Below, in pieces: positions 10,014 to 26,444 of a stretch of 64,000 bases of DNA. The notes under the pieces were generated by a model. It was not told the origin of the DNA and did no database searches. It saw only the letters and a list, made by a program, of their open reading frames with translations. Numbering within the stretch: position 1 is the stretch's first letter; every line of letters begins with the position of its first letter. The DNA lies in NCBI GenBank assembly GCA_028554795.2, contig CM068839.1, forward strand, positions 89,066,182 through 89,130,181, in the 5' to 3' direction. The position numbers were made by a program, and so were the translations under genes. Source of the stretch: Sinohyriopsis cumingii (taxonomy: Eukaryota; Mollusca; Bivalvia; Unionida; Unionidae).

Positions 10014-10029
10014 GGCCCTGAAAAGGGCC
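10014..10029 (-). terminator. histone-type 3' stem-loop, left TIR
   Basis: On the minus strand the sequence is CCCAAAGGCCCTTTTCAGGG followed by CCAGCC: a GGCCCT/AGGGCC stem with a TTTC loop and the upstream CCAAA flank of histone mRNAs. A purine block CGAAAAGAGATAG follows about 14 nt later, placed like a histone downstream element. It lies 24 nt after the stop of the TIR frame. Confidence 0.8.
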
Positions 10030-10053
10030 TTTGGGTTTATGTTAATATTAATA

Positions 10054-10280
10054 TTAACATAGATGGCATCTGTCACATCTTCTTCTTCTTCTTCTTCTTA
10101 AACTCCTTCTAACTACCGGTCCATACACAAGTACCCTCTTGAGACATCCTTGTCTTTCTATGTAAACTCTCCTCATCCATTGACTAGTATCTGTCCTATC
10201 AACAACAGTCCACTTGGACCTGACATACATGAGCATGTCCGTCCTAAACATCATGGAAGACACAAGGGTGGATGACTCAA
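10054..10280 (-). pseudogene. left-TIR copy of the CxxCxxC small gene, start lost
   Basis: Inverted duplicate of the 77-residue gene at 25,857-26,090. The coding part inside the TIR is kept and ends in CDRCHLC, two codons earlier than the right copy because CAA is TAA here. The TIR identity stops shortly after the position of the original start codon and TATA box, so this copy has no equivalent promoter or native start. Its frame runs into the minisatellite instead. The run of arginines before CDRCHLC is longer here because of a (CTT)n expansion. Confidence 0.7.
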
Positions 10281-10860
10281 TGAGCGGGTACAAACACAAA
10301 CACACAAACACAAACACACAAACACAAATACACAAACACATACGCTAAGAAACAATAAACAAATCCATAATCTACTATCCACACAATCGTACGTGAGCGG
10401 GTACAAACACAAACACACAAACACAAACACACAAACACAAACACACAAACACACACGCTAAGAAACAATAAACAAATCCATAATCTACTATCCACACAAT
10501 TGTACGTGAGCGGGTACAAACACAAACACACAAACACAAATACACAAACACATACGCTAAGAAACAATAAACAAATCCATAATCTACTATCCACACAATC
10601 TTACGTGAGCGGGTACAAACACAAACACACAAACACAAACACACAAACACATACGCTAAGAAACGATAAACAAATCCATAATCTACTATCCACACAATCT
10701 TACGTGAGCGGGTACAAACACAAACACACAAACACAAACACACAAACACATACGCTAAGAAACGATAAACAAATCCATAATCTACTATCCACACAATCGT
10801 ACATGAGCGGGTACAAACACAAACACACAAACACAAACACACAAACACATACCCTCACAC
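10281..10860. repeat. minisatellite, 99/113-bp units
   Basis: Six TGAGCGGGTAC-headed units start at 10,281, 10,394, 10,507, 10,606, 10,705 and 10,804. Period is 113 bp then 99 bp; the difference is the number of ACAAACAC subrepeats. It begins exactly at the inner edge of the left TIR and has no counterpart on the right. Long frames read through it on both strands are by-products of the repeat. Confidence 0.95.
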
Positions 10861-10949
10861 TATCTTAAAAAAGAGTTAGTGTTTATATTCACACTACTCT
10901 ACCTACACATTGGCAAATTGATGGTTATTTCTTTTCTAGAGTATTGGGT

Positions 10950-10965
10950 AGCCCTGAAAAGGGCT
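10950..10965 (-). terminator. histone-type 3' stem-loop after the 11,378 gene
   Basis: Minus strand AGCCCTTTTCAGGGCT, followed by the canonical ACCCA flank and then AGAAAAGAAATAA. The hairpin lies 29 nt after the stop codon at 10,995. No AATAAA is seen in the interval. Confidence 0.82.
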
Positions 10966-10994
10966 GTTGTTTTTGGAACTTCATGGACACCTGG

Positions 10995-11378
10995 TTAATG
11001 GTGGCACCTTCCAGGCCTGGCGCCACATACACATCTTATCCCCCAGTTACTTTTTACTTTTTTGGGGGAGAGAGCAGAGGCAGGATATGTCGCTTCAGAA
11101 TCCCAATTTTCGCTCTCTGGGATTCTGAAATTTATTCTTCTTCTCTTCTTTTCCTTCTCCTCCTCCTCTTCTTTGTTTCTTCTCTCCTCCTCTTTGTATC
11201 TTCTTTCCTCTTCTTCTTCTTTATATCTTCTCTCCTCCTCTTCTTTTTTTCTTCTTTCCTCCTCCTCTCTTATCCTTCCCTCCTCCACAATGGCTTCCGC
11301 GGCCAGTTCATTCAACAGGCGCCTGGCATATTCCAGATGCACATGAAGTTCCAACAGGTTAGACAGTCTCGTGTTCAT
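10995..11378 (-). CDS. accessory protein, Glu/Lys/Arg-rich coiled coil, 127 aa
   Basis: I do not recognise a family. The N-terminus (about residues 1-35) is helical with leucines. Residues 36-80 are an almost uninterrupted EEERRYKEEE-type charged helix, and the C-terminus has four cysteines/histidines in CVCGARPGRCHH. A TATA-like CTATAAATT stands at about 11,428-11,437 on the minus strand, 50 nt before the start, just downstream of a 30-bp block shared with the 12,230 gene. The mRNA would end at a histone-type stem-loop 29 nt after the stop. The charged repeat comes from a (CTT/CCT)n purine tract and may vary in length. Being in the arm outside the core genes, it is likely an accessory or host-interaction gene; no function is claimed. 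Confidence 0.65.
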   Translation of the reverse strand: MNTRLSNLLELHVHLEYARRLLNELAAEAIVEEGRIREEEERRKKEEEERRYKEEEEERRYKEEERRNKEEEEEKEKKRRRINFRIPESENWDSEATYPASALSPKKVKSNWGIRCVCGARPGRCHH

Positions 11379-11427
11379 TTTTGGTGTTGATCAATCAACA
11401 AGGGTAGCTAGACTGCCCAGCGAGTTT

Positions 11428-11437
11428 CAATTTATAG
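11428..11437 (-). promoter_or_regulatory. TATA box of the 11,378 gene
   Basis: CTATAAATTG on the minus strand, about 50 nt upstream of the ATG at 11,378 and immediately downstream of the shared 30-bp block at 11,440-11,469. Confidence 0.65.
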
Positions 11438-11439
11438 TG

Positions 11440-11469
11440 AAAGCGCGGACGTGAAGGAAAACATCCCCC
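11440..11469 (-). promoter_or_regulatory. 30-bp shared upstream element, copy 1
   Basis: Identical over 30 bp to 12,269-12,298, with core GCGCGGACGTGAAGG. Both copies sit upstream of an accessory gene on the minus strand, so a common promoter element is likely. Confidence 0.75.
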
Positions 11470-11826
11470 TAAAAAAACATAAAATTGATGTTACCTACAT
11501 CATGACCAAAAACAACATCGCGCGGACCTAAAAGAAACACTCACTCACTTTTTTATGCTACCCATCACTATTTTAAAATTTTTTATAAATCACTTCAATA
11601 GACTATCCACATACGCAAAGCAATCCAATCTAACTCCAAATATACACCTCAAACACCAAAAAAACATGATTTTAATCTACTATTCATACCAACTTACTTA
11701 AGCACTTACTAACACACAAACACATACCCTCACATTTTTTAAAAAAGAGTTAGTGTTTATTTTCAAACTACTCTACCTACACACATTGGCAAATCGATCG
11801 TTATTTCTTTTCTAGAGTATTGGGGT
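11470..11826. other. spacer with duplicated 3' cassette sequence
   Basis: No gene. From about 11,713 it repeats 10,845-10,950: ACACATACCCTCACA, an AAAAAAGAGTTAGTGTTTAT block, and a TTTCTTTTCTAGAGTATTGG block leading into the stem-loop. This suggests duplication of a whole gene cassette including its 3' processing signals. Confidence 0.7.
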
Positions 11827-11842
11827 AGCCCTGAAAAGGGCT
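11827..11842 (-). terminator. histone-type 3' stem-loop after the 12,230 gene
   Basis: Minus strand AGCCCTTTTCAGGGCT, flanked by ACCCC and, about 14 nt on, AGAAAAGAAATAACG. It follows by 33 nt the TAA at 11,876-11,878 that closes one of the two frames leaving the CAG tract. Confidence 0.8.
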
Positions 11843-11875
11843 GTTTTTTTGTTTGCTATGTATGGCATTCTTTTT

Positions 11876-12230
11876 TTAGTTTCTAAGAATGCGATGTCCT
11901 CTGAGGATAAACTTTCTGGCGATAGGTCTGCTTCTTCGGAAAGAAAAGAAGAACTCTTTGGTGTCGATACGGCAATCGACAAAGCCTCTGTCAGGTTCAG
12001 GTTGCTGCTGCTGCTGCTGTTGTTGCTGCTGTTGTCCATTCTTCTTTCTCCCTGTTCATTTCTTCTCTGAAGAGCTCTTCTATCAGGTCTTCAGTGATTT
12101 TTAACATTCTCACATTCTCTATTTCTTCTGGCTTCGGTATCAGACTGTGTCTGACCCTATGCAAATTCACGTAGGCTTCGTTGAGTTTAGCTAGTTTGGA
12201 GCACATCTTCTTCGGAGGATGAGTCGACAA
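11876..12230 (-). CDS. accessory gene with CAG microsatellite, frame uncertain
   Basis: The start at 12,230 opens a helical, charged N-terminal part ([27 protein letters not shown]). It runs into an imperfect CAG/CAA tract at about 12,003-12,040 and stops at 11,997 in the assembled frame. Both other frames stay open beyond the tract. One encodes polyglutamine then a basic tail ending at 11,876, 33 nt before the stem-loop. The other is Ser-rich and reads through the stem-loop to 11,812. A unit-length error or slippage in the tract most likely explains the break, and the polyglutamine frame is the better fit because the 25,637 gene also has polyglutamine. No family is recognised. Confidence 0.55.
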
Positions 12231-12268
12231 TGGATGGTTAGACTGGAAACAACCCGGTTCTTAAAGTC

Positions 12269-12298
12269 AAAGCGCGGACGTGAAGGAAAACATCCCCC
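12269..12298 (-). promoter_or_regulatory. 30-bp shared upstream element, copy 2
   Basis: Same 30-bp block as 11,440-11,469, here 39 bp upstream of the start at 12,230. No strong TATA box follows; CTTTAAGA is the nearest match. Confidence 0.7.
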
Positions 12299-12425
12299 AC
12301 ACGGTTTTTGAGTCGCAACTTTTAGTGAGTGTCATGAGAGGGATAGTAAGAAATGAAAGAGCATCAATCCAACATTCTTATAGCTAAACAAAAGACAAAG
12401 GCATTTTTTTCAAAACACAACATTT

Positions 12426-12431
12426 TTTATT
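12426..12431 (-). terminator. AATAAA polyadenylation signal for the capsid gene
   Basis: AATAAA on the minus strand about 105 nt after the major capsid stop at 12,537. It shows that the core genes use ordinary polyadenylation, unlike the accessory genes. Confidence 0.65.
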
Positions 12432-12536
12432 CAAAAATCACTTAACACTAAACAACAACTCTAACATTTTTTAACAACAATGCAACACTAAAAGTTTCTC
12501 CACTAGGTAAAGAGGGATAACAGTCTTCCATGGTTT

Positions 12537-13850
12537 CTAGTAATCTAGGATGACTTCTCTCAAACTGTTGATTTCTATGGTATTATCGAATTCTGCATAC
12601 AGGATGACGTTCACCGTTTCATCAGGGTCTCGGTCTTTAAACTGAATTTCCACACGAATCTGGCCGGATTTTATAGGGTGGAAATGTCCCTCGTCGCTGC
12701 CTTGGTCCGGAGTGAAATCGAAAGCCCACAAAGCGTAGCCTCCTGCATAATCCTCGTACGTAATACCGTGACTGGTATTGGTTCCTAACTGTCCGGTGGC
12801 TTCGTACAGGGACAAGTACGATCTCAAGTAATTCTTCTTGGTAAAGTCAGGTTCGAAAGGTCGGGTACACAAGGTCTTGCCATCGCGACTGACTTCGATT
12901 TTGGACACGCCAAAGTGTTGAAAGTAGAAAGGATTTTTTTCGGCAGCTCCGTTGAAGGCTGTATTCTCGACGATACCAACGATCAAACGTTTGGGTAACT
13001 GTCCTTGGAACAGATGATCTTCGATCATGGATCGCTGTCCCTTGGGAATGGTGAAGGTTTTCACTTCCACGCGTCGCATGGGATACTTGGCGGTCGTTCT
13101 GCTCAACGTCTGACTGATGTCGTTTCCCACTTTAGGTAACACTTCCACACGGCGTACGTAGAGTCTGGCTTCTTGGATTTTGGTTTTGTAACCGTCACTA
13201 TCAGCCATCAAATGGAAAGCGGTACTGCTACGATTCAGCCTCAGATGGACATCCACCCCGTTCAGCAAATACTTTTCTTGCAACCACATGTCCAAATGCA
13301 AACGATCTATCAGTTCTAAACTTGTGTCGGCTCCCGTGATTCTCTTTCTTCGTTCTACAAATCCATCATTGTTGTCTTTCTTTTCATCAGTTTCCAATAT
13401 TTCAAACTTGGTAGGTTCGTCAGCTTCCCATACCACACAGGCATTGAGATGAGTGTTCTTGGCATCTATTCCGTACGTCAAGAGATTTTCCAGGTAGGCA
13501 CGATAAGGGTAAGTATCCATGCTGCTACTGACCAGTTTGTTATTCAAGTACAAGTCCACTCCACTGAACAAGGAATGCATGAAATTGTTGACGGGAGCTA
13601 CTGCTTCATCGTCTATAGCACCTCCAGTCTTATCTAGAATTTTGACTTTCAGGTACAAGTAACTGCTATTCAGATCGATGTAATCTTCGGGCTGTCCTTT
13701 GATTTCAAACTCGATGGGAGCGGAATCGGTCAGTGAGGAGACGGGGTGAAATTCCACCCACTGGGATTCTTTCATCGTCATCATCGCGGGGGGCATGGCA
13801 AACAGATCCAGTTCCGTCTTGGAACAAGCGCAAGATTCTCGGTGCATCAT
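12537..13850 (-). CDS. major capsid protein (Polinton F54H12.2-like group)
   Basis: Full-length 437-residue protein of the Polinton/adintovirus major capsid group, often labelled F54H12.2-like in animal genomes. The family is predicted to form double jelly-roll trimers of an icosahedral shell. Recognisable features are the N-terminal EFEIKGQPEDYIDLNSSYL stretch, the middle RRVEVKTFTIPKGQ segment, and the late GGYALWAFDFTPDQ signature followed by an IRVEIQF strand. The start at 13,850 follows MCP-group practice; a cysteine-rich first dozen residues precede the conserved part. Downstream is an AATAAA signal. No break is visible. It follows the pVI-like and penton-like genes on the same strand, a typical morphogenesis cluster. 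Confidence 0.93.
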   Translation of the reverse strand: MMHRESCACSKTELDLFAMPPAMMTMKESQWVEFHPVSSLTDSAPIEFEIKGQPEDYIDLNSSYLYLKVKILDKTGGAIDDEAVAPVNNFMHSLFSGVDLYLNNKLVSSSMDTYPYRAYLENLLTYGIDAKNTHLNACVVWEADEPTKFEILETDEKKDNNDGFVERRKRITGADTSLELIDRLHLDMWLQEKYLLNGVDVHLRLNRSSTAFHLMADSDGYKTKIQEARLYVRRVEVLPKVGNDISQTLSRTTAKYPMRRVEVKTFTIPKGQRSMIEDHLFQGQLPKRLIVGIVENTAFNGAAEKNPFYFQHFGVSKIEVSRDGKTLCTRPFEPDFTKKNYLRSYLSLYEATGQLGTNTSHGITYEDYAGGYALWAFDFTPDQGSDEGHFHPIKSGQIRVEIQFKDRDPDETVNVILYAEFDNTIEINSLREVILDY

Positions 13851-13977
13851 TTTTTTTTGGTCTCTTTTCTCAATAATCGAAAACGTCTAAGTCAAGAACG
13901 GTTCTTCTTTTCTTGGCCTTTCTAGCTTGAAGTCTGGTGAAAGGGTGTTTTCTTCGTCGTCTCTTTCTGCCTTGTCC

Positions 13978-14286
13978 TTACTGAATGTCTGACTCGGTAG
14001 CGTGCAGGGCATTTATAGGTGTTTCTCGTTGGCCTAAAATGTCTTTGCCCGTTTGCAGCAAGATATTTTTGCCTGCCCTCATGAAGGCTTCTTTAGGGTT
14101 TTGTTTGTCGATGATGACATTTTGGAGAAATTCTTTGCCTTGCATCAGTGCCGCATCTTTCAAGGCGTGCAATCCGCGTGTCACCATCGGTTTCAACACC
14201 GGGGCCACCGAACGAAAGGCCGATTTTAACATATCTCCTAAACCGTGTCCTCGCTGTCGAGCAACGCCTCGGTACACTGGATACAT
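13978..14286 (-). CDS. pVI-like minor virion protein, basic tail cut off by a stop
   Basis: Short protein beginning MYPVYRGVARQRGHGLGDML, matching the GDGLGD-type amphipathic N-terminus of adenovirus pVI-like Polinton proteins. The corresponding gene of element 2 at 60,414 has the same YRATYGDGLGDV pattern. The family is thought to act in membrane disruption and capsid assembly. After the TAA at 13,978 the same frame stays open to TGA at 13,870-13,872 and is very basic (RKRRRRK, RKAKKRR). The stop may therefore have removed a DNA-binding tail, or the tail may be a separate peptide lacking an obvious start. The first 49 nt overlap the 3' end of the penton-like gene. Confidence 0.72.
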   Translation of the reverse strand: MYPVYRGVARQRGHGLGDMLKSAFRSVAPVLKPMVTRGLHALKDAALMQGKEFLQNVIIDKQNPKEAFMRAGKNILLQTGKDILGQRETPINALHATESDIQ

Positions 14287-15211
14287 GACTTACGAATCGT
14301 GAGAAAACCGTTTTCAAAATGAAGTTTCACCGTGACTTTTCCTTTGGTGAATGGAATATTTTGTCCCAAATCTCCTTTTATAGTAATGTTGACCGTGTCC
14401 AAATACGACTTACTGACAGGCAAATAGTGAGGATGGACAAATTCGCGGTGGACGTGGTAAGTGTTTCCACCTTCCTCGTCAGTGTTCGTGGCAGAATCCA
14501 CTTTGAAAGGAATGACACGCAGTAACGGTACGGAGGTGTGTCCCACCACGTTATACTGCACCACATCGGAGTACACAAACATCAAATTCAGTCCTTGGTT
14601 CAGTTCTACCGGGGCACGAAATAACTTGCTAAAAGACTCGTTGTCGTAAACGATGGGTAATTCGCTTTTCTTCATCATGCTCATTCTCAGGTTCATGTCT
14701 CCGCCCAACATGTCATACAATTCAGGACAAAATAAAATGGACAGGATTTTACTCCGTTCAAATTTCATCAAGAAGCGACGAGCTGTTTTGTGGTACTCCA
14801 TGGTGACACTTTTGTTAACATGCTCCAAAGCTTTCAGAAACACGGCATTAAACCTGGAGGCTATGGTGCTGACCAAATGTTGACCACTAAAATAATAGCC
14901 TGGGGAAATGAACAAGTGATAGGTGGTGTACTTTTGTGTACGGGTTTTCTTGTCATATTTGACATTGCTATCCATCCACTGTTGCAATTGTTCGTCATGA
15001 ACTTCACATCAAAAAAATTTTGATTGGGAAGGACATTGAGGACTTGGGTCGGGTGAATCATTTCTACTAAAGCCACTTCCCAATGGGCTTCGTGATCTAA
15101 GGGGATGGCTTGAGGTAATTTGGCCGTGTAACAGCACAACGTGTTCTTGGGAAACACCTCCATGGAACTGTCACTGGGTAAGGTTAAGTAAAATTGGTTT
15201 TGGTGACTCAT
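14238..15211 (-). pseudogene. penton-like minor capsid gene, one frameshift
   Basis: The N-terminal half starts at 15,211 with FYLTLPSDSSM, then HWEVALVEMIHP, the usual opening of Polinton penton-like (single jelly-roll) proteins. The remaining ~245 codons continue in another frame to 14,238 (FISPGYYFSGQHLVSTI, VPLLRVIPF, VNITIKGDLGQNIPF). The switch lies near 14,995-15,015, next to a T7 run, so it is either a real one-base indel or a homopolymer assembly error. The start overlaps the stop of the upstream membrane gene as ATGA, and the end overlaps the pVI-like gene, which suggests a compact polycistronic or alternatively spliced unit. Confidence 0.82.
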
Positions 15212-15624
15212 AATTCCAGAGTTCTGTGGCTGTCCGAGGGGTTAGTGGACGTCAGAGGCGTGTCTCCTTCTAAAATGGGGTTCTGATTGTGATTGAAGTG
15301 GTGACTGGCACTGGCACTGGACACAAGGTTCCCGGGGTTCCCGTTCGAGGTGAATTTCAGGGAGGGATTAGGAAGCAGGTAACCGATGCAACTGCTCAAT
15401 AAAATGGTCCACAATTGTTTGTCTCCTTGTTGCAAACTCAAATTGGCGATGGCTGCCCCGATGACACAATACACCACGAAGATTTGGCAGAAAAAGACGA
15501 TTTGCGTTTTAGGCACACGTTCTCCACACCACACCCACAAGGGTTGTTTTTGTAAATCTTGCACAGAAGAACTAGGTGAAGGAGGAGTGGTCGACGTAGC
15601 TGCGTCTGCTGTGTGAAAGGGCAT
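15208..15624 (-). CDS. two-pass membrane protein conserved in Polintons
   Basis: About 138 residues from the ATG at 15,624. Residues ~45-65 (IVFFCQIFVVYCVIGAAIA) and ~80-95 (WTILLSSCIGYLLPNP) are hydrophobic and fit two membrane spans with a short polar loop. The LWT-LLSSC-GYLLPNP segment is one I associate with a small membrane protein next to the integrase in Polintons; function unknown. It starts six bases after the integrase stop and ends in an ATGA overlap with the penton-like gene. Confidence 0.75.
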   Translation of the reverse strand: MPFHTADAATSTTPPSPSSSVQDLQKQPLWVWCGERVPKTQIVFFCQIFVVYCVIGAAIANLSLQQGDKQLWTILLSSCIGYLLPNPSLKFTSNGNPGNLVSSASASHHFNHNQNPILEGDTPLTSTNPSDSHRTLEL

Positions 15625-15629
15625 GATGG

Positions 15630-16739
15630 TCACTTCTTTTTATAGTCGATGACTTGCGAAGCGTCGATCCAAGAATCGAAACTGGGGGGATATCCTTTCC
15701 AACGTACTTTGACTTCTTTGACACGTCGTTTGCCCACTTTACGGGTTCTGCGTTCGAGAATGCTTTCGATGTCGTACACGTAGTCTTCTTTTTTGGTGAC
15801 ACGTTGTAACTCGGGCAAATAAAACGTTCCTTTGAGCACTTCTCCGTTCATGTCTTCCAATTTATAGACGGCAGGATGACGGCCATGCACTCGTCCAGTG
15901 ACGCGAAACAATTCGGTCGTCCAGTTAGGTAAGTAACCTTTGTCGAAAGTGCGTTTGGTTTTGCCAATGCGTACCCAATCTCCTACGGCCAACATTCCAC
16001 TTTTCTCGGGGACAGCCCTCGTCGGGGACGTACCAAACAGGCGCTCAAACACCAACACTTCGTTGTCGGGAGTCACGTATTGCGGGGCACATCCGATGCT
16101 TCGATGGTAAGATTGGTTGTACGCTTGCACCAGGTGCGGTAAGATGTCGATGTACTTCAGAGTGTGGTGATGCGTAAAATATTTCCACATGCGTTCTTTC
16201 AAAGTGCGTTGAAAACGTTCAACGATGCTGGCTTTGGTTTCGGGATTCTCGGTGGTAAAAAAATGAATGTCACATTTCTTTAATGCTTTTTGGAAAGCTT
16301 GGTTCAGAAATTCGGTGCCTTTGTCCGTTTGCCATCGAAGAGGGTGACGACCGCTTTGTTTCAACACCCGTTGCAGGGCTCGCACTAACTCGCTGCTCGA
16401 TTTGGAAGTCAAGGGTACGACCCAGGCAAATTTGGAAAAGACGTCGATGACACAAAACAAATATTTGTAGCCACGATTGTAGCTGACCAAATGAGAGACA
16501 TCGGCTAAATCGGCTTGCCATTGATGATCGATGCCTTCCACTCGGGTGCGACTTCTGGCAAACTTGCGTGGAATGGATTTGTGTAAAGTGTAGGTAGCTT
16601 GTTCTTGTAACCATGGTTGCACTTGAGGTAAACGGAGACTTTTCAGTCGCGTTTTGGCAGCACGATACAATTTTTGAACTCCTGCGTAACCTGCAGGATG
16701 GGAGGGATCGTAGTAAATGCTGGCTAAGACTTTTTCCAT
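15630..16739 (-). CDS. retroviral-type integrase with chromodomain
   Basis: About 369 residues from the methionine at 16,739 (MEKVLASIYYDP); an upstream methionine at 16,775 adds 12 residues but fits the family start less well. The catalytic core has the DDE residues in QADLADVS, QTDKGTEF and ASIVERFQRTLKERMW. A C-terminal SH3-like region (VGDWVRIGK) precedes a chromodomain from about residue 315 (YDIESILERR, VRWKGYPPSFDSWI). The enzyme would join linear element DNA to the host genome, producing the observed 6-bp duplication, and the chromodomain may guide it to chromatin. No catalytic residue is missing. Confidence 0.96.
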   Translation of the reverse strand: MEKVLASIYYDPSHPAGYAGVQKLYRAAKTRLKSLRLPQVQPWLQEQATYTLHKSIPRKFARSRTRVEGIDHQWQADLADVSHLVSYNRGYKYLFCVIDVFSKFAWVVPLTSKSSSELVRALQRVLKQSGRHPLRWQTDKGTEFLNQAFQKALKKCDIHFFTTENPETKASIVERFQRTLKERMWKYFTHHHTLKYIDILPHLVQAYNQSYHRSIGCAPQYVTPDNEVLVFERLFGTSPTRAVPEKSGMLAVGDWVRIGKTKRTFDKGYLPNWTTELFRVTGRVHGRHPAVYKLEDMNGEVLKGTFYLPELQRVTKKEDYVYDIESILERRTRKVGKRRVKEVKVRWKGYPPSFDSWIDASQVIDYKKK

Positions 16740-16759
16740 TTTTTGTGTTGGTTGGTGTG

Positions 16760-19619: not shown

Positions 19620-19665
19620 GGTGTGAGAAATGTCACTTGTGACACGAAAAACAAACAAGACAGGA

Positions 19666-19675
19666 GTTTATATAC
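19666..19675 (-). promoter_or_regulatory. TATA box of the ATPase gene
   Basis: GTATATAAAC on the minus strand. It decides the ATPase start in favour of the ATG at 19,619. Confidence 0.7.
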
Positions 19676-19689
19676 TTTTTCAGAACACG

Positions 19690-19695
19690 TTTATT
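19690..19695 (-). terminator. AATAAA signal after the PolB transcription unit
   Basis: AATAAA on the minus strand 52 nt after the stop of the 20,109 gene, just before the ATPase promoter. Confidence 0.6.
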
Positions 19696-19746
19696 GAATG
19701 TTTCAAACATGAATACGAAAGACAAAAATGCATAAAAGCCAAAGGC

Positions 19747-20109
19747 TTAAGTACAAGAATAAAAGGCACATGATAACCATGAACGAGGAATAAACACAAG
19801 TGTCTGTACAACATGTTTTGGGTAAAGTTCTAACCAGTTCAATAGTTGGGGTAAGGTCACACAAGTGTCCTCCCGAAAGGGTCTTTCAGGCCTGTCCACG
19901 ACAGTCCTGTCCTGGGTGACGGGTTCTTCTGGCACCGTCACTAACACAGGTTGAAAAGTAACTTTTTTCCTTGAATAACTCTCGTGCATACTGGGCCACC
20001 TCTTGTGTCCAAGCCTCAAAACCCTGGTCTCGGTGATGTCCAACATTTGACTCCTAACCAATCTGGTTTCTTCTTCGTCAACGACATGGTAAGTTACTTC
20101 AATGAACAA
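19747..20109 (-). CDS. hypothetical protein after PolB
   Basis: 120-residue frame starting 5 bp after the PolB stop, so probably on the same transcript. It is rich in charged residues and ends in SWLSCAFYSCT. No motif is recognised. It could be a separate small protein or noise in a 3' UTR; the close spacing and following AATAAA favour a real gene modestly. Confidence 0.45.
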   Translation of the reverse strand: MFIEVTYHVVDEEETRLVRSQMLDITETRVLRLGHKRWPSMHESYSRKKVTFQPVLVTVPEEPVTQDRTVVDRPERPFREDTCVTLPQLLNWLELYPKHVVQTLVFIPRSWLSCAFYSCT

Positions 20110-20113
20110 TGAA

Positions 20114-23100
20114 CTATCGATCTTGCCTAGGGTTCCTTTTCATATACAGACCAATACCTACGTGAACGTACGGTAAGGTGAAGTGATTGGGAAGTCGCAC
20201 TCGCTTCTGGTATACAATTTGATAGACTTTTTCCAAGGGTCGACTGACGATGTGGTGAGTGGGTAAACGTACAATCTTGTTCGGTTGATAGGTGGTCACT
20301 TTAAAGTTTCCATCCTCTCCCGATTGCAAGGCTTCTTTCAATACCCCAAAGTTGACCACTCGACTGGTACGATGATTCAGAGTCAGTCCTTTCACTTTGC
20401 ACGTCGTGTGCACTTCTCCTTGTTTGTCACGGTATTCGTAGCCGTTATTTCTGGGACCACCACTGACGAAACTTAGAATCTTGTCGTCGGGATGCTCGTC
20501 TGTCCAGGCTCCTAAACGGTCTCCTTCGATGTCAGGGTGCTGTTGAATCGGATGATGGATGTAAATGCAACTGTCCGTGTCAAAGTACAGGACGCGTTCT
20601 TCTAACAGTTCTAAAGCTTCGTACAATTTTAAGCGAGCATGAGCTGTCACGTAAGCCGCAATGATGACGTTTCCAAAAGGGTCGTCTTGTACAAAGTCCA
20701 GATCTTCTTCGTAATTGACCAAGATCAAATCCTCTCGAACGACGTCCACGTGTTTCATGTATTTGGTTTTGTCGTGAATCATCTGGAAGTAGCGGGAAGG
20801 TTCTGTCAAATATTCCGTCTTGGGTAAACACGGTCGTTGTGCCATTTTACCCCACAAGCAATTTAACATCACTTTGGCAAACGATCGCCTACCTTCGTTT
20901 TTTTCGATATGGTCTAAGGAGATGCCTTCTTGTGCGTAGTATTTCTCTTTGAATTGTATTTGGTCTTCGGGAGTGTGACACCAGGAAGGATAGCCGCTGG
21001 CTTCTTGTTTCAGTTTCAAAAAGGCATCCACGTAGTCAGCGAAAATGCCTTTCTGAGTAGGGTCACCCTTGTGGTACTGTTGTGTCTTGGGAAAGTGGCA
21101 AATTTCGTACACTTCTACCAGTTGGTATCCCATGTCCAGAGCTTTGAACAATTCCACGCTGACCCAGGTTCCCGTCAAGGCACGTTCTTCCTGGCTGTGA
21201 TGGCAAGGTTGGTCCTGGTTGCACGTTTCGGCACAAGTACGGCACAAGGGAAACATCAGTTTGCCTTGACAATGGTGAGGTAAGACGGGATGGTATAGGT
21301 TCGTGGGAGGCAAAACTTTACACTTGATCAAGCCTTCGTATTGTCGAATGTTTTTCAGGTCGATGTGTTCCGTGAACAATTGCGGGTGCCCTACAGGAAA
21401 GCGACAATATTTGCACACGTAGGGATACAGCGAACACACGTCCAAGTATTTGATTTCTTCTCCTTTCTCTTCGTCGGCTTGGTACAGCAAACAGGTGGCA
21501 TTGGTCCTTCCTCCGTACAAACTATCCCTCGGGTTCAGCGGGTCCATGAACTGGTAACTTTCCACGAGGCGTTTAAACTCGGGATCGGTTTTCAAACGGT
21601 GATCGTACTCGTGTTCCCACATTTCCACCACTTGGTATCCTTGCTGTTCTAACTTTAGGCGTCGCTGACAAGTGTCCTGGTACAAGTCTTCCATGGTTCG
21701 TTGCAAAAACTGATTTTTAGTGCCACGGTCAGGGTAACAGACGGGACATCCGTGAAATAAGCAACCGTTAAACTCGTACACGATCTTGGGGTTTTCTAAG
21801 TCCCAGCCATCTACCGAATACGTTCCGATGGTCTTTTCGCCTCCTCCGTTGCGGGCATGCTGAATCCATTTGTCTTCCTTGTCGCACAAGTAATGTAACC
21901 AACGTAGGGCTTTGACCGAGTATTGACGCTTGACATAGTTGGTCGTTTGAGGACTGATGACAGCCACGGTGTTTTCAGGCATGAATCGTTGGCGGTACAC
22001 TAAGTAACACGCTTTGGCAATGGTGCAAGCTTCTTTCAAAGGATCGACCCCTCCGTGTTCCATGAACAGTTCTCGAAATTTTCCACAGCAACGCCGTAAA
22101 ATGTCCACGTCGGAACGACAATACTTTAACATTTCTTCCTGAAAGTCGAAAGGGTCGGAGGCGTGAGCCTGGTACCAAGCGTAGAAAGCTTCTCGTTGTT
22201 CGGTACGCATGTTGTCGGGGTGGTAATAGTGAGCCTCAGGCAAATGGGGTAGAACAGCATGTTGATTGGCTTCCGTATTGAAAAAGTGTGGAAAGTACCC
22301 TTTAGCCATTTCTGTCATTCCAAACGTTTTAGGCATTCGGCTCAAAGGCATGGCCAAGTAACTCATCAAATCTTTAAACTGTACTTGTCCCACTTGCATG
22401 AAAATGATTTTGGCTCCGTTCAAAATCACTTTAGGACGTTCGGTGCCATGTTCCGTATAGTACCTCAAAAGAAACTGTCCATCGTATCCGGAGAAATTGT
22501 GAGCCATCACCGTGGCATGACGATGACAATTTCCGTAACGTTCGATGTCCTCTTGGCTCCACGTCTTGTCGATGGGGTCTAAGACCCATTGGGCAAAATC
22601 GGCTAACGTGTTTGGTCCCCGAAAGATTTTTTCACGCCCTCCAGGAATCTTGCTGCAGTGAGGGCAATGACTGAAGATAGGTTCTTGAATGCACTTCTCG
22701 CACGCTCGATGAGCCACACAGAAATTAGGGATGTGAATGCCAGTCTCTTGCATGCATTCGAAATCGAAAAAGATGAAATTGCCTTTCTTCTTGTGACCGT
22801 CCTCTTTCTCTGGTGGGGGTTGGTATTTTTGCACGTAGCATTCGTGTTCCAAGTCCACGATGTGGTGACAAATGTGACATTTTTTCTTTCCTCGACATAC
22901 GTGTGCCTTGGCATTGTTGGTAAGTATGCCTTGTCCACAGGTAGGGCACAATCTCAAGAGTTGACAAGCACATTTCTGCTGTGAACCTTGCGTCTTCAGA
23001 TGTTGCTGGTAACAGGCAGGGCTGACAAACGTACGCAGACAAGTTGAACAAGGCAGTGGTTCTTCGCTCAGACAGGGTGGAGAGGCCAAACATCCTGGGC

Positions 23101-24178
23101 ATTTCAATCCACAATGCTTGTGTTGCTCTCGATTGTTATAACCATAATCACATTTCTCACAATAATAACCGTATCCCAGGAATCCAGTGATACTGGTAAT
23201 GGTATCGAAATGGTCATCGTGATGATAGACATGAATGTATTTTCCGTCCTTAAAGTCTTGGCCTCGAAACAACAGAGACCCGCGCATTTCTTGAGGGTGC
23301 ACTTTCAAGGTGTAGCGTGGAGCTAGGGCATCTTGCAATTTTTGCATCTCAGGAATGCCACAGGGTGTGTCTTTGGACAGGCCAGCTTGTTGCAATAGGA
23401 GTTCTGCTTCGTTTCGTTGTTTGGTTCGGTTCGATTTTCGAATGTTCTCCCAGGTTCTTTTCCATTCTACCGTGTCGTTCTTGTTGGCATAGGTTCGTCC
23501 CACCACGATGGCACGGGCTAAGCACATCTGGTCTTGAGGGTTGTTAATTCGGACAAGACTACGCTTAATGTTGCGAAGGTCGTCCACCAATAACATCTTT
23601 TTGCGTCCTGTCCCTTGAGGAAGAGAGACGTGAGCCATTTTCAGTGTGGCTTTACCATCGGTGATGTCAAACTGGTCATTAGATTGTTGTACGTGTTGAA
23701 TCTTGTCCATGACTTTGGAAGGGGTTAGTTCTGCAGGTCTGCTAAACTCGATCCAAACAGGGGATTTCAAACCGTCGTGATCTATGGATAGTGTCAAGCG
23801 ATCGTCTTCTTTGGGTTGACATTGTCGCTTGAGTGAGGTGAGCAAAGAATCCCACATCTCGGTGATAAACCCTTCTGCTTTCTCCAAGGGTACGTCGGTC
23901 TTGAAATCTTTAAACTTCACCGTGTAGGTGTAAGCCGTGGTTCTAAATTTTCTAGAGGAGCGCTTTTCCGTCTCTCGAATGGAATAGTACTTTTCAGGGT
24001 TGACTAAGGGTGGTGAACTTGGTTTAGAGGGTTCGGATTCTGGTTCACTCATGTCCTCTTCAAAATCACTGGCATGAATTTGTGCCAAGATTTCAGCCCT
24101 GGTGCGAGGCGATAGATCACGTTTCTGCCTCTTACTTTCTTCTTCTTCTTTCTTCTCGAATGAATGGGATCGTTTCAT
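20114..24178 (-). CDS. polB: family B DNA polymerase, protein-primed type
   Basis: Intact 1,354-residue polymerase of the Polinton type, which replicates the linear genome from its TIR ends, probably using a protein primer. An N-terminal ~330-residue region of unknown role is followed by cysteine/histidine pairs of zinc-finger type (CPTCGQGI, CHICHHIVDLEHEC). Exonuclease motifs are IFFDFECMQETG, SGYDGQFLLRYY and YCRSDVDIL. Polymerase motif A is YLDVCSLYPYV, motif B VMLNCLWGKMA and motif C YFDTDSCIYI. The start MKRSHSFEKKEEE follows a nuclear-localisation-like basic stretch and lies 46 bp after a TATA box on the same strand. No catalytic residue is lost. Confidence 0.97.
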   Translation of the reverse strand: MKRSHSFEKKEEEESKRQKRDLSPRTRAEILAQIHASDFEEDMSEPESEPSKPSSPPLVNPEKYYSIRETEKRSSRKFRTTAYTYTVKFKDFKTDVPLEKAEGFITEMWDSLLTSLKRQCQPKEDDRLTLSIDHDGLKSPVWIEFSRPAELTPSKVMDKIQHVQQSNDQFDITDGKATLKMAHVSLPQGTGRKKMLLVDDLRNIKRSLVRINNPQDQMCLARAIVVGRTYANKNDTVEWKRTWENIRKSNRTKQRNEAELLLQQAGLSKDTPCGIPEMQKLQDALAPRYTLKVHPQEMRGSLLFRGQDFKDGKYIHVYHHDDHFDTITSITGFLGYGYYCEKCDYGYNNREQHKHCGLKCPGCLASPPCLSEEPLPCSTCLRTFVSPACYQQHLKTQGSQQKCACQLLRLCPTCGQGILTNNAKAHVCRGKKKCHICHHIVDLEHECYVQKYQPPPEKEDGHKKKGNFIFFDFECMQETGIHIPNFCVAHRACEKCIQEPIFSHCPHCSKIPGGREKIFRGPNTLADFAQWVLDPIDKTWSQEDIERYGNCHRHATVMAHNFSGYDGQFLLRYYTEHGTERPKVILNGAKIIFMQVGQVQFKDLMSYLAMPLSRMPKTFGMTEMAKGYFPHFFNTEANQHAVLPHLPEAHYYHPDNMRTEQREAFYAWYQAHASDPFDFQEEMLKYCRSDVDILRRCCGKFRELFMEHGGVDPLKEACTIAKACYLVYRQRFMPENTVAVISPQTTNYVKRQYSVKALRWLHYLCDKEDKWIQHARNGGGEKTIGTYSVDGWDLENPKIVYEFNGCLFHGCPVCYPDRGTKNQFLQRTMEDLYQDTCQRRLKLEQQGYQVVEMWEHEYDHRLKTDPEFKRLVESYQFMDPLNPRDSLYGGRTNATCLLYQADEEKGEEIKYLDVCSLYPYVCKYCRFPVGHPQLFTEHIDLKNIRQYEGLIKCKVLPPTNLYHPVLPHHCQGKLMFPLCRTCAETCNQDQPCHHSQEERALTGTWVSVELFKALDMGYQLVEVYEICHFPKTQQYHKGDPTQKGIFADYVDAFLKLKQEASGYPSWCHTPEDQIQFKEKYYAQEGISLDHIEKNEGRRSFAKVMLNCLWGKMAQRPCLPKTEYLTEPSRYFQMIHDKTKYMKHVDVVREDLILVNYEEDLDFVQDDPFGNVIIAAYVTAHARLKLYEALELLEERVLYFDTDSCIYIHHPIQQHPDIEGDRLGAWTDEHPDDKILSFVSGGPRNNGYEYRDKQGEVHTTCKVKGLTLNHRTSRVVNFGVLKEALQSGEDGNFKVTTYQPNKIVRLPTHHIVSRPLEKVYQIVYQKRVRLPNHFTLPYVHVGIGLYMKRNPRQDR

Positions 24179-24313
24179 CTTGAGTGCAAAACGTCAAATG
24201 ACTCAAGTTTAAACACCACAGACTAATTTATAGTCTTGGCAAACCAGCGTATATAAAAAGGGTGTGTGTCTTGTCCTTTCACTATTCATTTCACTCTCAA
24301 GCTGAGCACAACG
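24179..24313. promoter_or_regulatory. divergent promoter between polB and the zinc-knuckle gene
   Basis: A 135-bp region holds two opposed TATA boxes: CTATAAATTA on the minus strand (24,224-24,233) for polB and TATATAAAAAGG on the plus strand (24,250-24,261) for the 24,314 gene. The boxes are 17 bp apart, so the two genes are probably co-regulated. Confidence 0.8.
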
Positions 24314-24784
24314 ATGGAAGAGACTACCCAGATGGAACGTTTCGTCAGAGCTTTGCGAGGGGTCATTAGAAAATTCTCTTCAGACCAGCCGACGGACTAC
24401 TCTCCTTCCTTTCGAGATAAAAGTCAAGATACTTGCTATATCTGTCAGAAGAAAGGGCATTGGTCTTCAGAGTGTCCAGACCGTCAAAAAAGAACAAAAA
24501 CAGGGACTAAAAGAGACAAAAGTCAAGATACCTGTTATTATTGTAAAGAAAAAGGACATTGGTCTCCAGATTGCCCAAAAAAGAAACAAGAGGAGTCAGA
24601 AGAAAAGAAGGATTCTTCAAAAGAAGAGAGGGATTCTTCGGAAGAAGAGAGGGATTCTTCAGAGGAAGAAGAGGAAGAAAGAAGACAATTCTATTTAAAA
24701 GAAGCAAAGAAACAGGAGAAGAAAAGAAGAAGGGAAGAAAATGAGGTAAAAACGGTGAAGAAATTAAAAAAACAGAGAGACTAA
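24314..24784 (+). CDS. CCHC zinc-knuckle protein with charged tail
   Basis: About 156 residues. The methionine at 24,314 (MEETTQMERF) is preferred over 24,266 because the latter lies only a few bases after the TATA box. Two CCHC knuckles are clear: CYICQKKGHWSSEC and CYYCKEKGHWSPDC. The rest is an acidic SSEEERD repeat then a lysine/arginine helix ending KKLKKQRD. CCHC knuckles bind single-stranded nucleic acid, so roles in replication or RNA handling are plausible. This is the only core-region gene on the plus strand, and it shares a promoter with polB. The repeats suggest recent internal expansion. Confidence 0.8.
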   Translation: MEETTQMERFVRALRGVIRKFSSDQPTDYSPSFRDKSQDTCYICQKKGHWSSECPDRQKRTKTGTKRDKSQDTCYYCKEKGHWSPDCPKKKQEESEEKKDSSKEERDSSEEERDSSEEEEEERRQFYLKEAKKQEKKRRREENEVKTVKKLKKQRD

Positions 24785-25035
24785 ACAAGGTGAAAGAAGA
24801 AGTCAATGAACTTTTAATTAAAGTGTTCTGTGGTGAATTGTGAATTGGATTGTAAAAAAATGGATAAAAGAATACATGAATGATATAAGGTAAGTGTCTT
24901 TGAGTTTTGATTTTAAAATAAGAAGCTACACTCACGCACTCATACACAGACACGTACTATAAGGGTAAAATGGGTGGGGTTTATTTTTGAGTTATTCGCA
25001 AATTGAAATTGTATTTCTTTTCGAGAAATGTGGGT
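24785..25035. other. spacer between convergent genes
   Basis: No gene. It holds the 3' region of the zinc-knuckle gene (an ATTAAA at about 24,816) and the purine block of the histone-type signal at its right edge. Confidence 0.6.
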
Positions 25036-25051
25036 GGCCCTGAAAAGGGCC
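25036..25051 (-). terminator. histone-type 3' stem-loop after the 25,637 gene
   Basis: Minus strand GGCCCTTTTCAGGGCC followed by ACCCACA, an exact match to the animal histone mRNA consensus including the 3' flank. CGAAAAGAAATAC follows 14 nt later. It lies 25 nt after the stop at 25,077. Confidence 0.88.
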
Positions 25052-25076
25052 TTTTCATTTTGGTGTAGGAGTGAGT

Positions 25077-25637
25077 TTAACCAATCAACTTTAACTGCCT
25101 TAAGCCTTTGCCACGGCCAAGGCCTACTTCTGATGATTGGGTTGAAATCACTAAGGGTGGTACGACAGGCTTAGTCACAGGGTTGGCGTGTTTAGCTCGG
25201 GAAGGTCGTATTCTCTTCGGTCGTGATAAAGAAGTCTGATACATTTGTTTCAGACTTCTTAACTCCGCTAAAATGTCCAACAGTACCGTAGCCGTTTGAT
25301 TTTCACCCTCTTGTTTCTTTGCTGCTACTTCTTCTTGCTGCTGTTGCTGTTGTTTTTTTCTTACCTCTTCTTGTTGCTGTTGCTGTTGCTGTAGGAGAAA
25401 AGCTTGTTCCGCTTCCTTTTGTCGTTGCATAAATTTCTCCAATTCTTCTTTCTGTCTCTGTCTAAAATTCTCCACTTGCGGTAATGAAGAAGGTAACGAA
25501 GGTTCTGGAACAAATTCTTGCGAGGTAAGAAAATCCACAAAATCCCAGTGTACCTCTTCTGAAAGTAAGTCCGGGTTCCCTTGGGCAGTCTCCCCTGCTG
25601 GTGCACCCCAATGGATCGTTTTCTGAGTTTCCGTCAT
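25077..25637 (-). CDS. accessory protein with polyglutamine coiled coil, 186 aa
   Basis: I do not recognise the family. Residues ~55-120 form a long helix rich in Gln, Glu and Lys with two polyglutamine runs. It is followed by LLDILAELRSLKQMYQ, then a basic segment (RPKRIRPSRAKHA) and a hydrophobic-basic tail. The promoter has a TATA box (TCTATATAG, minus strand 25,684-25,692) preceded by an overlapping E-box CACGTG and cyclic-AMP-response-type TGACGTCA. The mRNA would end at the best-matching histone-type stem-loop. The location in the right arm, outside the conserved core, fits an accessory regulator. Confidence 0.72.
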   Translation of the reverse strand: MTETQKTIHWGAPAGETAQGNPDLLSEEVHWDFVDFLTSQEFVPEPSLPSSLPQVENFRQRQKEELEKFMQRQKEAEQAFLLQQQQQQQEEVRKKQQQQQQEEVAAKKQEGENQTATVLLDILAELRSLKQMYQTSLSRPKRIRPSRAKHANPVTKPVVPPLVISTQSSEVGLGRGKGLRQLKLIG

Positions 25638-25683
25638 GTTGAATCACTGTTGCATAGATTGACTGCACACAAGCGCTAACGAA

Positions 25684-25706
25684 TCTATATAGACCACGTG
25701 ACGTCA
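25684..25706 (-). promoter_or_regulatory. TATA, E-box and CRE-like promoter
   Basis: TATA-like TCTATATAG at 25,684-25,692, E-box CACGTG at 25,695-25,700 and palindromic TGACGTCA at 25,699-25,706, about 50-70 nt upstream of the 25,637 start. The site layout suggests control by host bZIP or bHLH factors. Confidence 0.65.
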
Positions 25707-25803
25707 CAGACTGCTCTCTTCGGATTGGATGCGAGCTGACTGAATTTTGTAACGCGTGTTCGGATTGGTGAATGAATTCAATCCGTTTCAATCCTTCCTG
25801 TAC

Positions 25804-25812
25804 CTATAAATA
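25804..25812 (+). promoter_or_regulatory. TATA box of the right-TIR gene
   Basis: CTATAAATA 45-53 nt before the ATG at 25,857, just outside the TIR, so only the right TIR copy of the gene has it. Confidence 0.7.
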
Positions 25813-25856
25813 AGCACAGTTCACTGCATTGATTCACCTATTCTCGTCGCTTCAAG

Positions 25857-26090
25857 ATGTGGACCACAGTTGAGTCATCCACCCTTGTGTCTTCCATGAT
25901 GTTTAGGACGGACATGCTCATGTATGTCAGGTCCAAGTGGACTGTTGTTGATAGGATAGATACTAGTCAATGGATGAGGAGAGTTTACATAGAAAGACAA
26001 GGATGTCTCAAGAGGGTACTTGTGTATGGACCGGTAGTTAGAAGGAGTTTAAGAAGAAGATGTGACAGATGCCATCTATGTCAATATTAA
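25857..26090 (+). CDS. small CxxCxxC protein, mostly inside the right TIR
   Basis: 77-residue frame starting MWTTVESSTLV. It has an even spread of hydrophobic residues (SSMMFRTDMLMYVRSKWTVV), a basic stretch and CDRCHLCQY at the end. The first four or five codons and the promoter are unique; the rest lies in the TIR and is duplicated at the left end. A histone-type stem-loop stands 18 nt after the stop. The small size, basic character and clustered cysteines would suit a nucleic-acid-binding peptide, but no homologue is recognised. Confidence 0.65.
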   Translation: MWTTVESSTLVSSMMFRTDMLMYVRSKWTVVDRIDTSQWMRRVYIERQGCLKRVLVYGPVVRRSLRRRCDRCHLCQY

Positions 26091-26444
26091 TATTAACATA
26101 AACCCAAAGGCCCTTTTCAGGGCCAGCCATATTTCTCGAAAAGAGATAGCCTTTCCATTGCTTACCCCTTTTCTAAATTTAAATTTAAATTTAAATTTAA
26201 AAAAAACTTTAAAAAAAAAAAAAAATCCCATATTCAATTCCCCTTGTCCCTAGACAAACCCAAACTCTATTCCCATGTTAATTTCCCTTGTCCCTAGACA
26301 GACCCAAACTCTATGTTAAATTCCCATTGTCCCTAAAGTGACCCACGATTTTTCTCCATGTTAAATTTCCATTGTCCCTAAAGTGTCCCAGGGGTCTTTT
26401 TAATGCTAAGTCCCATTGTCCCTATAGTATCCCACTTAACTACT
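25870..26444 (-). repeat. right terminal inverted repeat of element 1
   Basis: Reverse complement of 9,690-10,280 with few differences, mainly fewer (AAG) units and shorter homopolymers. It contains the body of the small CxxCxxC gene, a histone-type stem-loop and five AGGGACAA motifs in inverted orientation, and ends in CTTAACTACT. Confidence 0.95.
26109..26124 (+). terminator. histone-type 3' stem-loop, right TIR
   Basis: CCCAAAGGCCCTTTTCAGGG followed by CCAGCC on the plus strand, 18 nt after the stop of the TIR gene. The purine block CGAAAAGAGATAG follows about 14 nt later, matching the U7-pairing region of histone downstream elements in position and composition. Confidence 0.82.

What the first reader, a model, noticed from the sequence alone, without database searches (positions are those of the whole stretch)
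10014..26124. Histone-type mRNA 3' ends on the accessory genes of a Polinton
Five places in element 1 carry a 16-nt hairpin of the form RGCCCTTTTCAGGGCY (10,014; 10,950; 11,827; 25,036; 26,109). Each is transcribed in the sense of the preceding gene, and four lie 18-29 nt after the stop codon. Three carry the canonical ACCC 3' flank, and all five are followed about 14 nt later by CGAAAAGARATA or AGAAAAGAAATA. Stem length, TTTC loop, flank and spacer match metazoan replication-dependent histone mRNAs with their U7-pairing downstream element. The major capsid and polB units instead have AATAAA. The element may have captured the S-phase SLBP/U7 pathway for a gene subset, making non-polyadenylated mRNAs when host DNA is replicating. 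I know of no description of this in Polintons.
Basis: partly seen in the sequence, partly recalled or inferred. Interest (0 to 1): 0.92.

Follow-up and report, generated by a model that had tools for sequence, protein, structure and literature searches.

The report
Polinton genes with histone-type gene signals
A very abundant virus-like mobile element in an animal genome ends several of its own genes with the same RNA hairpin and processing signal as the host's histone genes, and starts some of them with the same promoter element, which suggests that it ties these genes to the host's DNA-replication phase.

Summary
Five exact 16-nt hairpins, each followed 12-13 nt later by a GAAAAGA block, lie 18-33 nt after five gene ends of a Polinton (9690-26444; 6-bp target-site duplication AATGTC). 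All five match Rfam Histone3 (three above the gathering score); nothing else in the 64 kb does at E <= 1. The host genome (2.9 Gb, unnamed) is held, which allowed the decisive comparison. The host's own tandem H1, H2A, H2B, H3 and H4 genes carry the same 3' ends: same stem in four of five, same TTTN loop, same GAAAAG core 13-14 nt after the stem. The family is huge: 52,932 exact hairpin-plus-block and 32,541 promoter-motif matches genome-wide (reversed-pattern controls 0), so over 10,000 copies if at most five hairpins each. Hairpin and block are better conserved than other 3' UTR cells. Not shown: RNA ends, S-phase expression, host U7 and SLBP.

The parts
9690..26444 (.). Polinton (element 1), 16.8 kb, with terminal inverted repeats about 9690-10280 and 25870-26444, termini AGTAGTTAAG.../...CTTAACTACT
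   Evidence: Inverted arms 96-100% complementary; 6-bp target-site duplication AATGTC at 9684-9689 and 26445-26450; integrase with chromodomain, PolB, A32-type ATPase; capsid fold
10014..10029 (-). Histone-type stem-loop A (left terminal repeat)
   Evidence: Exact motif; Histone3 35.6 bits; 24 nt after the stop of a copy of gene E without start codon
9990..10001 (-). Downstream purine block A, CGAAAAGAGATA
10950..10965 (-). Histone-type stem-loop B
   Evidence: Exact motif; Histone3 31.2 bits, E 5.2e-5, below gathering; 29 nt after stop
10926..10937 (-). Downstream purine block B, AGAAAAGAAATA
10995..11378 (-). Gene B, 127 aa, intronless ORF, rich in charged repeats; N-terminus resembles gene C by eye
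   Evidence: no Pfam match above cut-off
11442..11465 (-). Histone-type promoter element of gene B (GATGTTTTCCTTCACGTCCGCGCT), 64-87 nt upstream of the ATG
   Evidence: 1 mismatch to the host H2B element; 2 matches in window at <=3 mismatches, 0.00 in shuffles; host copies
11827..11842 (-). Histone-type stem-loop C
   Evidence: Exact motif; Histone3 29.3 bits, E 2.7e-4, below gathering
11802..11813 (-). Downstream purine block C, AGAAAAGAAATA
11876..12206 (-). Gene C; its frame is broken in the window; one open frame in copies L084 and L088, with stop 29 and 32 nt before the hairpin
12271..12294 (-). Histone-type promoter element of gene C
25036..25051 (-). Histone-type stem-loop D
   Evidence: Exact motif; Histone3 39.3 bits; 25 nt after stop
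25012..25023 (-). Downstream purine block D, CGAAAAGAAATA
25077..25637 (-). Gene D, 186 aa; conserved acidic N-terminal motif, one long predicted helix 53-137, basic C-terminal part; no fold assigned
   Evidence: 20 homologues, alignment of 17, model mean pLDDT 69
26109..26124 (+). Histone-type stem-loop E (right terminal repeat)
   Evidence: Exact motif; Histone3 35.6 bits; 18 nt after stop
26137..26148 (+). Downstream purine block E, CGAAAAGAGATA
25857..26090 (+). Gene E, 77 aa, basic; all but its first 13 nt lie in the terminal repeat
   Evidence: 2 homologues
12537..13850 (-). Major capsid protein gene (double jelly-roll fold), no hairpin within 200 nt after the stop, AATAAA at 12431
20114..24178 (-). 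DNA polymerase B gene, no hairpin within 200 nt after the stop; AATAAA at 19695, about 420 nt after the stop

Best explanation
This Polinton family ends its accessory (non-capsid, non-polymerase) genes with the host's replication-dependent histone 3'-end signal. Transcripts of genes A-E are most likely cut by the host SLBP/U7 machinery a few nucleotides after the hairpin, giving short non-polyadenylated mRNAs that are stabilised and translated like histone mRNAs, mainly when the host replicates its DNA. Genes B and C (and, in other copies, a left-end gene) also begin with a promoter element shared with host H1 and H2B, so start and end of these units are both histone-like. The capsid and polymerase units have ordinary poly(A) signals instead. 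Shown here: sequence identity of the 3' ends and of the promoter element with host histone genes, position after stops, conservation across copies, number of copies of the signals. Inferred: cleavage by U7 snRNP, absence of poly(A), S-phase timing, benefit to the element.
For: All five hairpins match Histone3. In three 10-kb stretches of the host histone array, the 18 complete histone gene ends (a 19th gene, cut by the end of a stretch, was dropped) each have a 6-bp/4-nt stem-loop 27-38 nt after the stop, with GAAAAG 13-14 nt after the stem, and all 18 are above the Histone3 cut-off; the element has 13-14 nt. Host H2B's hairpin is letter-identical to hairpins A, D and E. Promoter element: host H2B GATGTTTTCCATCACGTCCGCGCT against 11442-11465 and 12271-12294, 1 mismatch each, expected 0.00; 55 rows of it at up to 5 mismatches in the element copies, 52 distinct places because 3 were fetched twice. 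Genome-wide 52,932 hairpin+block matches against 0 for the reversed pattern (host H2B genes are included); 9 complete five-hairpin layouts among the first 100 listed places. In copies not brought in by the hairpin counted, hairpin+block cells depart from the majority in 11 of 586 (gene D, 21 rows) and 10 of 476 (gene B, 17 rows), against 163 of 1789 and 128 of 1437 in other 3' UTR cells. AATAAA after hairpin D is not conserved (1 of 21 rows). Two dissimilar left-end genes end 15-24 nt before the same terminal-repeat hairpin in 11 of 16 copies examined. All five hairpins are in the sense of the gene.
Against: No RNA data. Host U7 not found (RF00066: 0 matches, 65 of 801,960 candidates scored, and the tool's control rang nowhere; pattern searches inconclusive). 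The SLBP search did not complete. AATAAA follows hairpins C and D in the window, and AATATAAA is present after gene B in 16 of 17 copies, in a stretch about as conserved as the hairpin, so polyadenylation may be used too. By variable sites instead of cells, conservation is significant for D (7/28 v 51/89) but not for B (10/28 v 36/89). Cells are not independent, since copies share ancestry, and all copies read came from loci with a well-scoring hairpin somewhere. Of five copies fetched for gene C, three have hairpin C and two (L085, L087) have no match to the hairpin pattern there. Five of the 16 left-end copies have no open frame ending 15-24 nt before the hairpin. Genes D and E lack the promoter element. 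No IMG/VR contig matched a histone stem-loop pattern, so generality is unknown.
Confidence: 0.84

Rival explanations
1. Dual 3' ends: the hairpin units can be processed either by the histone route in cycling cells or at a nearby poly(A) signal in resting cells, as described for human H2AC18. The element would use the switch, not a pure histone mode. (A variant of the best explanation, not exclusive of it.)
For: AATAAA after hairpins C and D and ATATAAA after B; AATATAAA in 16 of 17 gene-B copies and a conserved stretch around it. Dual processing of H2AC18 is stated in the abstract of PMC9756948 (passages).
Against: AATAAA after hairpin D in 1 of 21 copies not brought in by that hairpin (6 of 31 in all) and none within 120 nt of A and E.
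Confidence: 0.35
2. Relic: an ancestral element picked up a histone-gene end once, spread it by duplication, and the hairpins no longer matter; mRNAs are simply polyadenylated downstream.
For: Hairpins B and C lie in duplicated units (families D4, D11, D12); terminal-repeat copies A and E are kept alike as repeats; some copies have lost the hairpin pattern after gene C (2 of 5).
Against: Hairpin and block are better conserved than surrounding 3' UTR cells; spacing of 13 nt in 21 of 21 gene-D rows and 13-14 in 17 of 17 gene-B rows; different genes at the left end keep the same hairpin.
Confidence: 0.07
3. DNA-level role: hairpins in or near the terminal repeats serve replication, packaging or integration.
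For: Two of five lie in the terminal repeats.
Against: Three are internal; all are in gene sense and after stops; the asymmetric purine block and the identity with host histone ends have no DNA-level explanation.
Confidence: 0.03
4. The promoter element was not captured from the host's histone genes: it moved the other way, or both use a general promoter element of this animal.
For: The motif is far more often found (32,541) than the histone genes scored (150, a lower bound); places outside the element and the histone array were not examined.
Against: In the 10-kb histone stretch it lies upstream of H2B and H1, and in weaker reverse form upstream of H2A; histone 3' stem-loops are a general animal feature (PMC7026596 passages), so for the 3' end the host is the likely source. 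Direction was not tested for the promoter element.
Confidence: 0.1

Closest known systems
Metazoan replication-dependent histone mRNA 3' ends (SLBP stem-loop + histone downstream element, Rfam RF00032)
   Same: 6-bp stem, 4-nt TTTC loop, purine block with AAAAGAG/AAAAGAA at the same distance; PMC7026596 names AAAGAG as the purine core of mouse H2a (passages); same form in the host's own genes
   Different: Found on genes of a virus-like mobile element that are not histone genes; in two cases inside terminal inverted repeats
Polintons/Mavericks and adintoviruses
   Same: Terminal inverted repeats, 6-bp duplication, integrase with chromodomain, PolB, A32-type ATPase, double jelly-roll capsid
   Different: Histone-type gene ends and promoter elements; two papers on such elements, searched by terms only, had 0 occurrences of 'histone', 'polyadenyl' and 'stem-loop' (PMC8097293; PMC11071308). 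The second Polinton-like element in the same window has no Histone3 match at E <= 1.
Human H2AC18 with overlapping histone and poly(A) 3' signals (PMC9756948)
   Same: Possible coexistence of stem-loop and poly(A) signal (abstract and passages)
   Different: A histone gene of the cell, not a mobile element

Membership tests
Rfam RF00032 Histone3 stem-loop | Score above the curated gathering threshold | tested here: inconclusive
   Met by A, D and E; not met by B (31.2) and C (29.3), cut-off 34; all five E <= 2.7e-4
Replication-dependent histone 3' end | 6-bp stem with 4-nt loop shortly after the stop codon | tested here: met
   18-33 nt after stops, host histones 27-38 nt
Replication-dependent histone 3' end | Purine-rich downstream element at fixed distance, like that of the host's own histone genes | tested here: met
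   GAAAAG 13-14 nt after the stem in both
Replication-dependent histone 3' end | Pairing with host U7 snRNA | tested here: inconclusive
   U7 not identified
Replication-dependent histone 3' end | Non-polyadenylated mRNA ending just after the stem-loop | not testable with these tools
   No RNA data
Replication-dependent histone gene | Encodes a histone | tested here: not met
   No Pfam histone match in genes B, D and E; gene C and the left-end genes were not scanned. The units work like histone mRNAs but are not histone genes
Polinton/Maverick | Terminal inverted repeats with AG...CT termini and 6-bp target-site duplication (definition recalled) | tested here: met
Polinton/Maverick | Retrovirus-like integrase, PolB, packaging ATPase | tested here: met
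   PF00665 + PF00385, PF03175, PF04665
Polinton/Maverick | Double jelly-roll major capsid protein | tested here: met
   No Pfam match, but the model (mean pLDDT 79) matches PBCV-1, iridovirus, Sputnik and mavirus capsids, best E 4.8e-16, TM-scores about 0.5-0.65
Polinton/Maverick | Maturation protease gene (recalled) | not tested
   Not looked for

The most novel reading that the evidence does not exclude
A Polinton family with more than 10,000 copies has taken over the host's histone expression programme for its accessory genes, at both ends (H1/H2B-type promoter element and SLBP/U7-type 3' end), so that these genes run in step with host DNA replication and outside poly(A) control. With tens of thousands of genomic stem-loops, its transcripts may also compete with histone mRNAs for SLBP and U7.
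Probability: 0.6. Interest if true: 0.92.

Novelty: new variant of a known kind. Interest (0 to 1): 0.86.

Why it matters
Histone-type 3' ends make animal mRNAs without poly(A) and are normally a mark of replication-dependent histone genes (established knowledge; abstracts listed). A mobile element using them, together with a histone promoter element, would be a direct example of a virus-like DNA element that plugs into S-phase control through RNA processing. It also predicts a practical blind spot: poly(A)-selected RNA-seq would miss the transcripts of such genes. The claim can be tested with total RNA of the host.

Tried and rejected
Viral relatives: capsid and ATPase searches of viral contigs found no encoded relative, and a general histone stem-loop pattern gave 0 stretches. 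U7: Rfam model 0 matches (65 of 801,960 candidates scored); first pattern 18 hits against 32 for the reversed control, of which 6 of 18 were read and none had a convincing U7-like 3' hairpin; second pattern 264 hits against 131, many with one identical spacer that looks like a repeat, two better-looking candidates not read. The SLBP family search did not complete, so SLBP in this host is assumed from general knowledge. A total count of hairpins without the block did not complete. Gene D's structure model (mean pLDDT 69) shows only a long helix and was not searched further. Literature, listings only unless said: 'polinton' + 'histone stem-loop' 0 papers; 'adintovirus' + 'stem-loop' 1 paper, on protist PLVs; other listings showed no paper that joins the two subjects by title or opening abstract: 20 of 35 shown; 1 of 1; 12 of 5,690; 15 of 282; 12 of 25; 15 of 1,594; 12 of 12; 12 of 36; none of the 12 held both a Polinton term and a histone-processing term. 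Term searches inside PMC8097293, PMC11071308 and PMC10294476 found no 'histone' or 'stem-loop'. The adintovirus description paper is not held. No claim is made about papers outside this library. Host species: not named by the data; capsid relatives that carry organism names come mainly from bivalves (Mercenaria, Crassostrea, Ostrea, Saccostrea, best 120 of 532 shown), so a bivalve or other mollusc is likely, by inference.

Full report
Observation. The five hairpins are exact and beyond chance. Rfam's histone 3' model recognises all five (E 5.2e-8 to 2.7e-4), three above its curated threshold, and nothing else in 64 kb at E <= 1. They stand in the sense of the preceding gene, 18-33 nt after the stop. 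A and E lie in the two copies of one terminal inverted repeat, and B and C lie in related duplicated units, so the five are not independent.

The element. It runs from 9690 to 26444, with AGTAGTTAAG termini and a 6-bp duplication AATGTC on both sides. It encodes an integrase with chromodomain, PolB, an A32-type packaging ATPase and a capsid protein. The capsid has no Pfam match, but its model matches double jelly-roll capsids of PBCV-1, iridovirus, Sputnik and mavirus. This is a Polinton. Left end: genes C, B and a terminal slot A; right end: a zinc-knuckle gene, gene D and gene E. Hairpins follow slot A, B, C, D and E; none lies within 200 nt after the capsid, integrase, ATPase, PolB or zinc-knuckle gene. 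In the window, slot A holds a copy of gene E without promoter and start codon. Gene C is broken in the window. Of five other copies fetched, three have hairpin C: in L084 and L088 gene C is one open frame with its stop 29 and 32 nt before it, and in L086 the frame from the same start ends 23 nt before it in another reading frame; in L085 and L087 no hairpin match was found there.

Host comparison. The host genome is held as an unnamed 2.9-Gb assembly. A histone-family search scored 150 of 662 candidates, all matches, mostly in a tandem array with units of about 8.3 kb. In three stretches of 10 kb, 18 complete histone gene ends (H1, H2A, H2B, H3 and H4, several times each; one cut gene dropped) each have a 6-bp/4-nt hairpin 27-38 nt after the stop, all above the Histone3 cut-off. 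The stem is GGCCCT/AGGGCC in four of five genes and GGTCCT/AGGACC in H1; the loop is TTTC, TTTT or TTTA; GAAAAG begins 13-14 nt after the stem. The element's hairpins A, D and E are identical in all 16 letters to host H2B's; B and C differ in the first pair (A-T for G-C). Blocks B and C share CTAGAAAAGA with H1, H2B, H3 and H4; H2A has CCGAAAAGG, and A, D and E have TCGAAAAGA. So the likeness is to this host's own version of the signal, not only to a general animal one.

Promoter. Genes B and C share a 24-nt upstream element with host H2B (1 mismatch each) and H1 (2 mismatches). It occurs twice in the window and twice in a 10-kb histone stretch at up to 3 mismatches, with 0.00 expected in shuffles of either. 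A weaker form (4 mismatches) lies in reverse upstream of H2A. In other copies it recurs before gene B, before gene C and, often twice, before the left-end gene: 55 rows, 52 distinct places since 3 were fetched twice; 44 of the 55 have TATAA, TATAT or TTTAA within 30 nt. Genes D and E, and the capsid and PolB genes, lack it.

Copies. All 75 scored Histone3 candidates in the genome matched (589,472 candidates in the first look). Fifty of the 75 were read (30 fetched, 20). By inspection all 50 show the flanks of one of this element's hairpins, and none holds one of five short histone motifs. The one control genome that rang, of 14, was below the cut-off. Genome-wide, hairpin + spacer + GAAAAGA has 52,932 exact matches and the promoter motif 32,541, with 0 for each reversed pattern; host histone genes are part of these counts. 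The first 100 listed places, all on C1, hold 9 complete five-hairpin layouts of 16.8-20.9 kb and 18 divergent D/E-type pairs about 1.1 kb apart. At no more than five hairpins per copy, more than 10,000 copies follow by arithmetic.

Conservation. To avoid counting hairpins by which a locus was chosen, gene tails were found by protein similarity in loci L001-L050 and the window: 31 for gene D (10 dropped because the gene-D hairpin itself had brought the locus; 21 kept, window included) and 17 for gene B. The loci as such were still chosen by a well-scoring hairpin elsewhere in the same copy. Six standard pairs are kept in 17 of 21 and 14 of 17, five in the rest. Minority cells: 11 of 586 in hairpin and block against 163 of 1789 in other 3' UTR positions for D; 10 of 476 against 128 of 1437 for B. 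By variable sites the difference holds for D (7/28 v 51/89, p 0.004) but not for B (10/28 v 36/89, p 0.82). Shared ancestry makes the p-values optimistic. Spacing to the purine core is 13 nt in all 21 D rows and 13-14 in all 17 B rows. Meanwhile gene-B proteins in nearly full-length alignments are 41-61% identical to the window's. Thirteen open gene-D frames have median pairwise dN/dS 0.38 (only open frames were taken, which favours low values). The left-end gene comes in two versions that are dissimilar by eye; in 11 of 16 copies examined an open frame ends 15-24 nt before the terminal-repeat hairpin, in two it ends 60 and 66 nt before, in three none was found. This suggests that the 3' end is kept while genes change.

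Poly(A) signals. AATAAA follows the capsid gene (12431) and lies about 420 nt after PolB (19695), but also follows hairpins C and D in the window. After hairpin D it is present in 1 of 21 copies not brought in by that hairpin (6 of 31 in all); after gene B, AATATAAA is present in 16 of 17 copies within a stretch about as conserved as the hairpin. Dual processing, as described for human H2AC18 (PMC9756948, abstract and passages), is therefore a serious option.

Mechanism. From established knowledge (PMC7026596, passages): SLBP binds the stem-loop, U7 snRNP pairs with the downstream element, CPSF73 cuts between them, and the upstream product is the mature mRNA. The mouse H2a purine core is AAAGAG. 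The element's blocks contain AAAAGAG or AAAAGAA. I infer that its accessory transcripts enter this route. Not shown are cleavage, absence of poly(A), timing, and the host U7 and SLBP themselves (SLBP search unanswered).

Reach. Protein relatives of gene D exist in other sequence sets (20 proteins). One relative of gene D and one of gene E run past the usual stop and encode, in the right place, peptides compatible with most of the hairpin and block (P0133, P0142). This hints at the same ends in other genomes but is weak. No viral contig matched a histone stem-loop pattern.

Verdict. The finding is real and stronger than reported: the ends and, for part of the genes, the starts are histone-like in the host's own idiom. 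The functional claim awaits RNA.

Noticed in passing
45294-62373: A second, different Polinton-like element with inverted copies of the same ORF at both ends, a DJR-domain capsid and A32-type ATPase; it has no Histone3 match at E <= 1.
   Followed up: partly
G000:C1:5073951-5085078: Seven matches of a variant of the histone promoter motif about 1.85 kb apart on one strand, perhaps a tandem gene array; not read.
   Followed up: no
10205-10911: Minisatellite of 99-nt units between hairpin A and hairpin B in the left end of the element.
   Followed up: no
10090-10280 and 25870-26060: The left terminal repeat contains a copy of gene E without promoter and start codon, while many other copies have a different gene there; looks like conversion of one end by the other.
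   Followed up: partly
54445-54673: Imperfect palindrome in element 2 that matches a plant microRNA family on both strands far below its cut-off; likely just a palindrome.
   Followed up: no
31642-31714: tRNA-like sequence just above the Rfam cut-off, on the minus strand, between the two elements.
   Followed up: no
24314-24784: Plus-strand gene with two CCHC zinc knuckles next to PolB, without a histone-type hairpin within 200 nt after the stop.
   Followed up: no
10862-10905 (minus strand, after purine block B): Stretch with AATATAAA after the gene-B hairpin that is about as conserved across copies as the hairpin itself; may be a poly(A) signal or something else.
   Followed up: partly
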